Origin: Flavonifractor sp. An10
GTDB lineage: Bacteria; Bacillota; Clostridia; Oscillospirales; Oscillospiraceae
DNA length: 64,000 bases
Assembly (NCBI RefSeq): GCF_002161215.1
Contig: NZ_NFMB01000006.1
Span: 248,001-312,000 of the forward strand
Direction of reading: 5' to 3'
The first letter of the stretch is position 1. Every line of letters begins with the position of its first letter. The position numbers were made by a program, and so were the translations under genes. The notes under the pieces were generated by a model, which saw only the letters and a list, made by a program, of their open reading frames with translations, was not told where the DNA came from and did not search any database. Shown piece by piece: positions 8,135-57,922 of this stretch.

Positions 8135-8162
8135 AGCCCCGGAACCATCCGGTTCCGGGGCT
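8135..8162 (+). repeat. 28-bp hairpin, first of two identical copies flanking element A
   Basis: Perfect 12-bp stem with ATCC loop just after iscU. The same 28 bases recur at 8378-8405. This copy has no T-run, because the repeat element follows immediately. Confidence 0.75.
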
Positions 8163-8377
8163 CAGCGTGTCGAAAAAGCGGCTTTGCCGCTTTTTCGAGA
8201 AAAGTTGCATGGCGGAAGGGGTTCGTTTTCTTGCGAAAAAGTCACCCCTTCCGCCATGAGAAGGGTCATTTCCGAGGCGCATGTCCCCGGAAATGACGGA
8301 TTTTCATTTGATTCCTGCGGCTACGGCCGCAGGAACTCTGCGAGGCTTTCCCTTACGGAAGGTTTTTCGACAGCCTC
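8163..8377 (+). repeat. structured dispersed element, copy A
   Basis: About 215 bp lying between iscU and its terminator. It has four hairpins in order. P1: 12-bp stem 8170-8181/8187-8198. P2: 12-bp stem 8210-8221/8245-8256 with an inner hairpin and TGAGAAG after it. P3: 10-bp stem 8265-8274/8288-8297, loop containing GCGCATGTC. P4: CCTGCGGC stem at about 8314-8333. The tail GAACTCTGCGAGGCTTT (8333-8349) and an inverted TTTTTCGACA end follow. Copies at 57721 (B), 54391 (C, inverted) and 26137 (D, partial) share the architecture with different but still paired stems. Confidence 0.75.
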
Positions 8378-8409
8378 AGCCCCGGAACCATCCGGTTCCG
8401 GGGCTTTTT
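8378..8409 (+). terminator. terminator of nifS-iscU (second copy of the 28-bp hairpin)
   Basis: The stem of 8135-8162 repeated exactly at 8378-8405, here followed by TTTTT. It probably ends transcription after the repeat element, so element A would form part of the iscU 3' untranslated region. Confidence 0.75.
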
Positions 8410-15299: not shown

Positions 15300-15520
15300 G
15301 TATGTGAACTGTCGGGCCCGCCGGGGCGGATATCATCCGCTCACAAGCCTTCCCCCCTGTGGGGGGAAGGTGGATGGCCGAAGGCCAGACGGATGAGGGG
15401 TTCCCGGATGTCTGCCCGGCCACCGCTGTCCGTGGGGCGCGCCGAGTCGTCGCGCCCCACAAAGGGGCCCTCGATGTCCGGCGGGCGACCACAGGTCGCC
15501 CCTACGGACAAGCGGTTGGG
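15300..15520. repeat. cluster of palindromic (REP-like) repeats
   Basis: Between the GTPase gene and the sigma gene lie several palindromes: a GCGGATATCATCCGC unit near 15327-15341, a CTTCCCCCC/GGGGGGAAG hairpin near 15350-15371, a perfect 10-bp inverted repeat 15432-15441/15451-15460 (GTGGGGCGCG arms), and GGGCGACC/GGTCGCCC 15483-15490/15494-15501. The last two units recur in inverted orientation at 40452-40505, and the last also at 26249-26268. No coding sequence is seen. Confidence 0.7.
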
Positions 15521-26037: not shown

Positions 26038-26105
26038 TCTAGGGGGGAATACTTCCCCCCTAGATACAAAACCGCCGCGCCGCCTGTGGCGGCACAACGG
26101 TTTTG
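26038..26105 (+). promoter_or_regulatory. two strong hairpins after atpG
   Basis: Hairpin 1 begins directly after the atpG stop: perfect 12-bp stem 26038-26049/26053-26064. Hairpin 2 is two-tiered: 8-bp outer stem 26067-26074/26098-26105 and 6-bp inner stem 26079-26084/26088-26093. Neither has a T-run, so mRNA processing, partial termination or 3'-end protection are all possible. Confidence 0.65.
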
Positions 26106-26136
26106 ATACCCCCCCTCACCCGCGCCCGCGCGGGTG

Positions 26137-26250
26137 GTTGCCCGCCAGTGGCGGAGCAAGCATCGGTGTGCTGCGCAGGCGCATGTCCTGCTCCGCACAA
26201 ATTTCATTTGTTTTCACCCGCAAGCGGGCGAAACTCTGCGAGGCTGTAGG
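26137..26250 (+). repeat. structured dispersed element, copy D (partial), inside the atp operon
   Basis: Lacks P1. It shows a short P2 (CCGCC/GGCGG near 26142-26154), the linker AGCAAG, P3 with 9 of 11 pairs (26168-26178/26188-26198) and loop GCGCATGTC, AAATTTCATTTG, P4 (CCCGC/GCGGG 26217-26228) and the tail AAACTCTGCGAGGCT. The stems differ from copies A-C but pairing is mostly kept. Confidence 0.6.
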
Positions 26251-26268
26251 GGCGACCTGCGGTCGCCC
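26249..26268. repeat. REP-like palindrome GGGGCGACC/GGTCGCCC
   Basis: 8-bp inverted repeat with 3-base loop, the same unit as 15483-15501 and 40484-40502. Confidence 0.65.
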
Positions 26269-26292
26269 GTCCTGATCAAACGAACAGACTGA

Positions 26293-40299: not shown

Positions 40300-41050
40300 G
40301 CCCTTCACAATTTACAATTTGTTCGGATTTCCCCCGCCGGGAGGGCGCGGCATCCCGGCGGACTTTTTGACTAAGCGGATACTGTCCGCCTGTTTCGCCG
40401 TTCGCAGGGGCGGATATGATCCGCCCGTTCGCCTCTGCAACCGTCGGCTCCGTGGGGCGCGACGACTCGGCGCGCCGTCTGTAGGGGCGACCTGTGGCCG
40501 CCCGCTCATAGAGGATGCCCCCCCTCGCGGAGCGGGCCTGCCCGGCCGGGGCACCGCTTTCTTTCCCAAAGAAAGCGGTGGGAAAGAAAGGGCCGGGGGT
40601 GTGCCCCCGGCACCCCCCAAAAACGGGGGCTCATGGCGGCGGTGGGTTGTACGGGCAGGGCAAAGACCGGGCGTGCATTGCCGCCCGCTCTCTTGACGCT
40701 TCTGTATACAGGCGCTGCCGCGCCTCGGGCGGCACGCATCGGGATTACCCTGCAAGCCTTGGGAGTGGTTGCGCTGTACCCACTTGGCCCGCCGGGCCGC
40801 CGTCGGCGCCATGCCTCCGAAATACCGGGGCGGCTGCTGTGGCTGGGAAACGGCGCGTCAAGGATGCCGCGCCCTACATCGTCGGCCCAAGCTACGGATC
40901 GTTCGCTTCCGGGCAAGCCCGAAAGCTCATTCCCTCCGCTGGGCCTCCTCTCCCCACGGCGACCACTCCGTTGGGTCGCCGCGGGGGCCCCAATTTTTAC
41001 GCCCGTCCCGAGCCGAGGGGGCGTTACAGCGTAAGCCCCCCGGCCGGGCA
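40300..41050. repeat. 750-bp non-coding stretch built of repeats
   Basis: No convincing gene: overlapping frames are open only because the DNA is GC-rich. It holds GGGGCGGATATGATCCGCCC (about 40404-40423), GTGGGGCGCG...CGCGCC (40452-40476) and GGGGCGACC-TGT-GGCCGCCC (40484-40503), all shared with 15.3-15.5 kb. Further units are CTTTCTTTCCC/GGGAAAGAAAG (about 40558-40588) and GGGGGTGTGCCCCCGGCACCCCCC (about 40595-40620). The remainder (40650-41050) shows nothing recognisable. Confidence 0.6.
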
Positions 41051-54390: not shown

Positions 54391-54604
54391 CAGCCTGTCG
54401 AAAAACCCTCCCCGAAGGAAAGCCTCGCAGAGTTCGCGCCCGCAGGCGCGAATGAAGTCAAATCCGTTTTCAGCCGCGACATGTGCGCGGCTGAAAACAC
54501 TTCTCGGCCCACAAGTGTGAGGCTTGGCCACTTATAGGGGGCAAACCTTGCGCGCAGTGGGCCGCAGTCTTTTCAAAAAAGCGGCCTGGCCGCTTTTTTG
54601 ACAG
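54391..54604 (-). repeat. structured dispersed element, copy C
   Basis: Reads on the minus strand directly after the GNAT stop codon. P1: 13-bp stem 54573-54585/54589-54601. P2: CGGCCCAC/GTGGGCCG. GAGAAG linker. P3: perfect 13-bp stem 54466-54478/54486-54498 with a CACATGT loop. P4: CGCGC/GCGCG. Tail identical over 17 bases to copies A and B (54419-54435), then a TTTTTCGACAGGCTG end. P2 and P3 stem sequences are unrelated to A and B, yet fully paired. Confidence 0.75.
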
Positions 54605-57692: not shown

Positions 57693-57720
57693 GCGCCCGA
57701 TCCCTCCGGGGATCGGGCGC
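57693..57720 (-). terminator. terminator of the DUF4358 gene
   Basis: Perfect 12-bp stem (57693-57704 / 57709-57720), then GTTTTTTG on the minus strand. Element B lies between the gene's stop and this hairpin. Confidence 0.8.
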
Positions 57721-57922
57721 TCAGGCTGTCGAAAAAGTGGCGAAGCCACTTTTTCGAGAAAGATTGCATGGCGGAAGGGCCTCGATTTCTTGCGAAATTG
57801 TCGCCCCTTCCACCATGAGAAGTGTCATTTCCGACGCACATGTCGCCGGAAATGACGGATTTTCATTTGATTCCTGCGGCTGCGGCCGCAGGAACTCTGC
57901 GAGGCTTTTTCGACACGCTGCG
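57721..57922 (+). repeat. structured dispersed element, copy B
   Basis: P1: 12-bp stem 57729-57740/57746-57757, one pair changed C-G to T-A relative to copy A. P2 stem near 57768-57815, one mismatch, with inner hairpin ATTTC/GAAAT replacing TTTTC/GAAAA. P3: 57824-57833/57847-57856, loop with CACATGTC. P4: CCTGCGGC/GCCGCAGG. Tail 57892-57908, end CTTTTTCGACACGCTG. It is antisense to the neighbouring DUF4358 transcript. Confidence 0.8.

What the first reader, a model, noticed from the sequence alone, without database searches (positions are those of the whole stretch)
8163..8377. Dispersed structured element with covarying stems: candidate new RNA or hairpin-transposed family
Copies A (8163-8377), B (57721-57922), C (54391-54604, minus) and D (26137-26250) share one order of parts: P1, P2, a GAGAAG-like linker, P3 with a conserved CATGT-containing loop, a TTCATTTG-like linker, P4 and the tail ACTCTGCGAGGCT. 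Stem sequences change while pairing stays. P3 is GTCATTTCCG-paired in A and B, a different 13-bp perfect stem in C, and a third, 9-of-11-paired one in D. P1 differs between A and B by a compensated C-G to T-A pair. Selection on structure is the simplest reading. Three of four copies lie sense in a transcript (iscU 3' UTR, GNAT 3' UTR, atp operon). Ends resemble terminal inverted repeats (GTCGAAAAAG / CTTTTTCGAC), so a MITE-like mobile origin is also open.
Basis: seen in the sequence. Interest (0 to 1): 0.82.

Follow-up and report, generated by a model that had tools for sequence, protein, structure and literature searches.

The report
Terminator-hopping mini-transposon with structured cargo
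Many of these repeated folded sequences are small, gene-free transposons that jump into the hairpins ending other genes and leave a copy of the whole hairpin on both sides, apparently moved by an IS1182-family transposase, while a second set sits between neighbouring genes and how it got there is unknown.

Summary
No Rfam match. Pairing covaries massively, but G·U pairs are no commoner than A·C mismatches (22 vs 33), unlike tRNA stems (12 vs 0), so RNA-only selection is not the simplest reading.

Copies with both terminal repeats are MITEs: 23 of 39 carry the same hairpin on both sides, with no tandem orientation bias (9:7). The host has an IS1182-family IS with the same ends, also between two copies of one hairpin. 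A same-genus genome has one terminator and no element at copy A's site. IS1272 of the same family deletes its target hairpin; whole-hairpin duplication is a hypothetical pathway in that paper (PMC5678879).

Copies without the right repeat (copy D) lie sense between co-directional genes (29:4). Over genomes, element presence tracks neither IS1182 nor Y1 transposases. How this class moves is unexplained and is the most novel part.

The parts
8135..8162 (+). left copy of the duplicated terminator hairpin flanking copy A (28 bp)
   Evidence: exact 28-bp match to 8378-8405; a same-genus orthologous site has one terminator
8163..8377 (+). copy A, mini-transposon (MITE), CAGCGTGTCG to CGACAGCCTC
   Evidence: BLAST and covariance-model hits genome-wide; terminal repeats shared with an IS1182-family IS
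8170..8198 (+). P1 hairpin, overlaps the left terminal repeat; by eye also like an A-tract/T-tract intrinsic terminator
8208..8258 (+). P2 hairpin
8265..8297 (+). P3 hairpin with a CGCATGT loop
   Evidence: 12 of 12 modelled pairs have changes on both sides across copies
8312..8335 (+). P4 hairpin
8335..8347 (+). conserved tail ACTCTGCGAGGCT
8378..8405 (+). right copy of the duplicated terminator hairpin, followed by the T run
57693..57720 (+). hairpin left of copy B; no matching second copy in the right flank
57721..57922 (+). copy B, antisense to both neighbouring genes, shorter than A at the right end
54391..54604 (-). copy C, directly behind the stop codon of the upstream gene; right repeat present; a terminator-like hairpin beyond it; no hairpin duplication
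26038..26245 (+). copy D, between atpG and atpD, no right repeat, another 5' domain (CTAGGGGGG.. hairpins)
   Evidence: tail absent in all 9 readable relatives, one of which has a related piece without P4 and tail

Best explanation
The copies with both ends are non-autonomous transposons (MITEs) with terminal repeats CAGSSTGTCGAAAAA. An IS1182-family transposase, present in the same genome inside an IS with the same ends, joins them to a hairpin-forming target, usually a terminator-like hairpin. Joining at the two 5' feet of the (cruciform) hairpin leaves the whole hairpin duplicated on both sides, so the duplication length follows the hairpin. The element carries hairpins P1-P4 and a fixed tail; the gene upstream keeps a hairpin and P1 itself resembles a terminator, so insertion probably costs little. 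Shown: shared ends, hairpin duplication, an empty site, an IS clade with the same ends. Inferred: that this transposase does the moving, the cruciform intermediate, and that pairing in the cargo is kept or renewed at the DNA level. Not explained: how copies without a right repeat reached gaps between genes in sense orientation.
For: Same hairpin on both sides in 23 of 39 end-bounded copies, above the 99% level of 2,000 mismatched flank pairs; 21 of them exceed every control. The duplicated stretch ends within 2 bases of both feet of the hairpin in 30 of 44 duplicated rows, and its length follows hairpin span (Spearman 0.72 over the 39 of these 44 rows with a clear stem; 65 rows of two element families examined, three loci counted twice). 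The own-genome IS1182 IS in L314 has the same ends and a near-identical hairpin on both sides. Of 30 IS1182 loci looked at, five (L308, L309, L311, L312, L314) have CAGNCTGTC-type ends and duplicated hairpins; all five lie, with L310 and L313, in one 100/100 clade of seven among 17 proteins in the tree. Empty site: in G014 the iscU orthologue is followed by one terminator and the same ABC-type gene. A second MITE family with the same ends shows the same duplication (18 of 23 loci after removing three counted twice). In other genomes 34 of 103 copies exceed the 99% flank control. Right-repeat copies have no tandem orientation bias, 9:7. Hairpin targeting by an IS1182-family IS is published.
Against: Element presence does not correlate with IS1182 presence over 149 genomes (both 24, element only 37, IS only 26, neither 62; p=0.22); some high-copy genomes (G008, G013) show no IS1182 match, in assemblies 79-85% complete. 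16 of 39 end-bounded copies show no hairpin duplication. 7 of 23 duplicated pairs match better inverted than direct, which simple fill-in does not give. The core P3-P4-tail is not part of the IS or of the second MITE family as read, so it is not needed for this transposition and its conservation is unexplained. In the IS clade L310 and L313 show no duplicated hairpin, and L321, with similar ends (GCAGACTGTCCGAAAAC), falls outside it on a long branch. Two more own-genome IS1182 genes over the cut-off were not examined for ends. The G-U test has few events; against a loose terminator control (153 G-U to 105 A-C) it is p=0.011 pooled but 0.076 and 0.28 in subsets.
Confidence: 0.82

Rival explanations
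1. A new structured RNA family: a cis-acting element of 3' UTRs and intercistronic regions (attenuator, processing or stability element) kept by selection on RNA folding; mobility is secondary.
For: Strong covariation within the genome and between genera; by eye fixed unpaired linkers (GAGAAG, CACACTTG, CATGTC loop, tail); copies without a right repeat sense 29:4 between co-directional genes, with no consistent GC-skew sign.
Against: G-U 22 vs A-C 33 over three alignments, T-G and C-A nearly equal, against 12:0 in stems of 10 tRNAs; no Rfam match; right-repeat copies have no orientation bias; scattered presence at the three orthologous sites looked at.
Confidence: 0.15
2. Copies without a right repeat are IS1182 insertions in the stem-loop-replacing mode known for IS1272 (the hairpin behind the stop codon is deleted), followed by decay of the right end.
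For: IS1272 removes the target hairpin and leaves no duplication; many P1 hairpins of these copies still resemble the left end; at least three members of this class are right-repeat copies with mutated ends (L006, L011, L024).
Against: In the copies printed the right repeat is as a rule absent rather than recognisably decayed; orientation is 29:4 whereas right-repeat copies are 9:7 (the two classes differ at p=0.025); the empty sites in relatives are short gaps, most without a hairpin by eye, though some have one.
Confidence: 0.25
3. A REP/REPIN-like family moved by a Y1 (TnpA-REP/RAYT) transposase.
For: Dispersed extragenic hairpins; Y1 genes exist in the host genome, 12 matches.
Against: No association of element and Y1 presence over 149 genomes (both 25, element only 36, Y1 only 36, neither 52; p=1.0); hairpin duplications and terminal repeats are not expected of Y1 elements (recalled). 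Loci around the Y1 genes were not inspected.
Confidence: 0.03

Closest known systems
IS1272 / TnSha1 (IS1182 family, staphylococci)
   Same: Targets hairpins, often terminators, without sequence preference (PMC5678879: abstract and outline, sections 22, 24, 29 part 1 and passages; PMC4923244: passages)
   Different: IS1272 deletes the target hairpin and leaves no duplication; here the whole hairpin is duplicated and non-autonomous passengers dominate
Other IS1182-family elements
   Same: A 2025 paper says members transpose with or without target duplication and can recognise a sequence or a structure (PMC12056078, passages); ISPse1 is listed with a value of 4 in what I take as the duplication column (PMC3281130, passages)
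   Different: In those passages no hairpin-sized duplication is described
Prokaryotic MITEs (Correia/nemis, RUP, BOX, MITEAba12)
   Same: Short, gene-free, terminal repeats, intergenic (PMC10969869, passages; MITEAba12 seen in a search listing only)
   Different: Partner is IS1182-type; duplications are hairpin-sized; internal stems covary over a taxonomic family
REP/REPIN elements
   Same: Dispersed extragenic palindromes (REPIN paper seen in a search listing only)
   Different: No association with Y1 transposases here
Integron attC sites (recalled)
   Same: Stem sequence free, pairing and a few unpaired bases kept, structure recognised as DNA
   Different: Analogy only; no integrase link was tested

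Membership tests
IS1182-mobilised MITE (right-repeat copies) | terminal repeats shared with an autonomous IS in the same genome | tested here: met
   L314 ends CAGGCTGTCGAAAAAG / CAGCCTGTCGAGAAAG
IS1182-mobilised MITE (right-repeat copies) | target duplication at insertion | tested here: met
   23 of 39, hairpin-sized; 16 of 39 without
IS1182-mobilised MITE (right-repeat copies) | empty orthologous site | tested here: met
   single terminator in G014; no tail within 420 nt after iscU in 18 relatives with readable sequence, one of them readable for only about 120 nt; a 19th is cut off. One site tested.
IS1182-mobilised MITE (right-repeat copies) | element moved by that transposase | not testable with these tools
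   needs a transposition assay
IS1182-mobilised MITE (right-repeat copies) | co-occurrence with IS1182 across genomes (expected, not strictly defining) | tested here: not met
   Fisher p=0.22 over 149 genomes
IS1272-type stem-loop replacement | target is a hairpin | tested here: met
   39 of 44 duplicated flank rows have a stem score of 8 or more
IS1272-type stem-loop replacement | target hairpin deleted, no duplication | tested here: not met
   hairpin duplicated in 23 of 39
Structured RNA family | covarying helices | tested here: met
   covariation score 0.591 vs 0.163 shuffled, slid controls at most 0.149
Structured RNA family | G-U tolerated over A-C | tested here: not met
   22 vs 33 pooled; few events
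Structured RNA family | match to a described Rfam family | tested here: not met
Structured RNA family | transcribed and functional as RNA | not testable with these tools
   no RNA-seq available
REP/REPIN | associated Y1 transposase | tested here: not met
   presence over 149 genomes, p=1.0

The most novel reading that the evidence does not exclude
The core P1-P2-P3-P4-tail is an independent mobile element that enters gaps between co-transcribed genes in the sense direction, directly behind stop codons, without target duplication, by a transcription-linked or RNA-mediated route distinct from IS1182 and Y1 transposition; its stems turn over freely while pairing and a few unpaired linkers are kept. 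Some copies were captured between IS1182 ends and became terminator-hopping MITEs.
Probability: 0.25. Interest if true: 0.85.

Novelty: new variant of a known kind. Interest (0 to 1): 0.62.

Why it matters
Transposition that duplicates a whole hairpin was drawn as a possible pathway for cruciform targets (pathway b in PMC5678879), while the studied IS1182-family member, IS1272, deletes the hairpin. Here are dozens of natural examples (23 copies of one family and 18 loci of another), one empty site and an IS with the same ends, so the outcome can be tested. It also suggests that strong stem covariation in a dispersed element can arise at the DNA level, a caution for covariation-based RNA discovery, with a simple check (G-U against A-C). 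The family is common: at least 20 hits in 23 of 149 genomes, where at most 29 per genome were scored. Copies sit at gene ends and in gaps between genes that look, by eye, like atpG-atpD, argR-recN, fabH-fabK and pstB-phoU.

Tried and rejected
Known RNA: no Rfam match at gathering thresholds for the window; with relaxed thresholds on six loci and the D region, only T-boxes at two loci (one over its gathering score) and a chance miRNA hit. Plasmids: no match in 72,556 records (records very near the host may be left out). Y1/RAYT partner: no association. IS1182 presence as predictor of element presence: not significant. IS481-like IS in L155 as partner: its ends (TGTAGG..TTGGACA) differ and it sits inside a repeat of the second MITE family. 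Pairs of terminal repeats 0.5-5 kb apart in the 275 loci held then: only L155; the IS1182 IS came from the family search. Replication-strand insertion as cause of the sense bias: GC skew relative to the element has mixed sign; 23 tandem copies without right repeat were covered, 5 lie against their region's majority strand, 3 of these follow their own neighbours and 2 oppose both. Two gene-calling attempts put genes on the wrong strand (atp region) and were replaced by a model seeded with atp genes.

Literature: ten searches showed no description of this family, of IS1182-moved MITEs, or of natural whole-hairpin duplications in what I saw of them; most subscription papers are not held. One IS review, looked up by an id I recalled, is not held.

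Rows dropped: three tail matches (L080, L081, L088), judged chance matches in coding sequence, were removed before the context count (84 to 81). 12 of 81 copies had no recognisable P3 loop near the tail and were left out of stem lists. The P3 count kept only copies with at least 8 of 12 Watson-Crick cells. Alignment A1 holds 34 chosen, diverse copies; A2 and A3 were fitted to the model. The class without right repeat (43) contains at least three right-repeat copies with mutated ends. MITE2 counts include three loci counted twice, and such repeats also entered the flank control (its maximum is 70; threshold 11). The control may include a copy paired with itself. The tRNA control is 10 tRNAs.

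Full report
What was checked. A search of the host genome (3.88 Mb, 15 contigs) with copy A gives about 40 full or long partial copies among 79 matches. The tail pattern with at most one mismatch occurs 83 times against 3 for the reversed control. A covariance model of the core (P3, linker, P4, tail) built from 34 copies gives 89 hits at E<=0.001. No Rfam family matches.

Distribution. The model hits 61 of 149 genomes (own included): mostly the own genus and family, and in the rest of the order three genomes of one genus with at least 29 hits each (G096, G119, G137) and two with few, weak hits (G131, G140). Of 398 genomes drawn over the phylum 3 are hit: the own genome, one of the same family and a weak one. 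That the host is Oscillospiraceae-like is an inference. No plasmid record matches.

Structure. On 34 own-genome copies 93.7% of pair cells are standard pairs and the covariation score is 0.602 (shuffled 0.169; slid versions at most 0.161). On 91 distinct rows from the named genomes it is 96.9% and 0.591 (shuffled 0.163; slid at most 0.149). Alignments A2 and A3 were fitted to the model, which favours the structure. The host genome holds 16 different 5' arms of P3. Deviations from Watson-Crick are symmetric between strands: in A3 T-G 15 and G-T 1 against C-A 16 and A-C 5; over A1, A2 and A3 G-U 22 and A-C 33. In P3 of 151 copies it is 11 and 13; in acceptor and T stems of 10 tRNAs from the same loci 12 and 0 (p=0.002). 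Terminator-like hairpins, found without preference for G-U, give 153 and 105 (p=0.003 for an excess of G-U). The pooled element counts differ from tRNA (p=1.5e-4) and from terminators (p=0.011), but A3 alone and P3 alone differ from terminators only at p=0.076 and 0.28. I read this as pairing kept or renewed in DNA rather than by selection on an RNA alone; it is suggestive, not decisive.

Two classes. With gene calls seeded from seven atp genes, none of 81 copies lies inside a called gene and the upstream gene is sense in 68. Copies with a recognisable right repeat (38) are 9 sense to 7 antisense between co-directional genes; copies without it (43) are 29 to 4 (p=1.1e-5; the classes differ at p=0.025). 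In the sense copies of the second class printed the element starts within about 0-10 bases of the stop codon, and the tail often lies close before the next gene. Orientation follows the adjacent genes in 3 of the 5 places where the region's majority strand runs against the element, and GC skew has no consistent sign (23 tandem copies covered).

Right-repeat class: terminator-hopping MITE. In 23 of 39 end-bounded copies the two flanks carry the same hairpin, beyond the 99% level of mismatched flank pairs; 21 exceed all 2,000 controls. The duplicated stretch is 15-40 bp in this family and 20-36 bp in the second one; it ends within 2 bases of both hairpin feet in 30 of 44 rows, and its length follows hairpin span (Spearman 0.72, 39 rows). 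The second MITE family, with the same ends but another interior, behaves alike (21 of 26 rows, 18 of 23 loci). In other genomes 34 of 103 copies pass the 99% flank control, among them copies of Sporobacter termitidis. For copy A, the orthologous place in genome G014 has the iscU orthologue, one terminator and the same downstream ABC-type gene; no tail follows iscU within 420 nt in any of 18 relatives with readable sequence, one of them readable for only about 120 nt.

Partner. The host genome holds an IS1182-family transposase gene (370 bits, over the curated cut-off) in an IS of about 1.57 kb with ends CAGGCTGTCGAAAAAG and CAGCCTGTCGAGAAAG, flanked by two near-identical copies of a 36-bp hairpin. 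Two further own-genome matches of this family over the cut-off were not examined for ends. Of 17 IS1182-family proteins in a tree, the six whose ISs have CAGNCTGTC-type ends plus L310 form one clade with 100/100 support; L310 carries at least one such end. Five of these seven ISs have duplicated hairpins outside their ends (L308, L309, L311, L312, L314); L310 and L313 do not. L321, with similar ends, falls outside the clade on a long branch.

Mechanism. Wan et al. 2017 (PMC5678879; abstract and outline, sections 22 and 24, section 29 part 1 and passages seen) showed that IS1272, of the IS1182 family, lands in hairpins and replaces them. They drew two further outcomes for a cruciform target; in pathway b joining at the two 5' feet duplicates the whole stem-loop. 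Furi et al. 2016 (PMC4923244; passages) report terminator hairpins as targets, blunt deletion and no duplication. A 2025 paper (PMC12056078; passages) notes that IS1182-related transposases can act with or without target duplication, so duplication as such is not new for the family; I saw no hairpin-sized one described. The present elements show the pathway-b outcome many times over. That a cruciform is the intermediate is inferred. Seven of 23 duplicated pairs fit better inverted than direct, which simple fill-in does not give; I have no tested explanation.

Copies without right repeat. Between atpG and atpD the tail of copy D is absent from all 9 relatives read; 8 have short gaps and one (G002) has a related piece without P4 and tail (10 of the 16 genomes with a match were read, those with a close AtpD). 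Between argR and recN (names by eye) 4 of 19 genomes have a tail-bearing element, all sense and right behind the argR stop, but with wholly different stems even in the sister with 96% ArgR identity and nearly the same 3' junction; the other 15 have no tail within 300 nt. In the first flank scan copies of this class had matches of background length, and over genomes element presence tracks neither IS1182 nor Y1 transposases. Either they are recurrent insertions by an unknown, orientation-biased route, or conversion among copies replaces the stems. This is open and is the reason for the novel reading.

Verdict. Novelty: a new variant of a known kind (IS1182-type hairpin targeting, and MITEs), with whole-hairpin duplication as a natural outcome. 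Ten literature searches showed no prior description (listed in Tried and rejected), in a library that lacks most subscription papers.

Noticed in passing
L156, L157, L158, L162 and others (own genome): Second MITE family, about 160 bp, same ends, inner GGGAACC hairpin, also between duplicated terminator hairpins.
   Followed up: partly
L024, L027, L028, L063, L084; also L160: A hairpin element (GCGTTTCGAGGCCAACCGCCGC..) inserted into P4 loops and, in L160, into the GGGAACC hairpin of the second MITE family; 5 of 84 tail sites.
   Followed up: partly
L049, L060, L073, L074; reversed in L078: Another hairpin element (CCCCCCAGGGGGCCCTCTCTTGCCCC..) inserted in the P3 loop; 8 of 84 tail sites by a one-orientation pattern.
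   Followed up: partly
L155:1610-2680: IS481-like IS (308 aa; below NCBI's cut-off) with an apparent duplication of about 25 bp, inserted in a hairpin end of the second MITE family.
   Followed up: partly
L193:4811-5035: Tandem triplication of the P3-P4-tail unit.
   Followed up: no
L007, L009, L060, L156, L312: Flanking hairpin copies that match better in inverted than in direct orientation (L312 by eye).
   Followed up: partly
L066 around 1580-1825 minus, and the tail just downstream of it: T-box leader whose terminator is followed by a P4-tail remnant just before the downstream gene.
   Followed up: no
window 26246-26269, 15482-15505, 40477-40505: Another dispersed hairpin (GTAGGGGCGACCTGCGGTCGCCCG), which follows the tail of several copies of the D type.
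   Followed up: no
L159:732-774: Solitary 43-bp P1 palindrome with both end sequences and no cargo.
   Followed up: no
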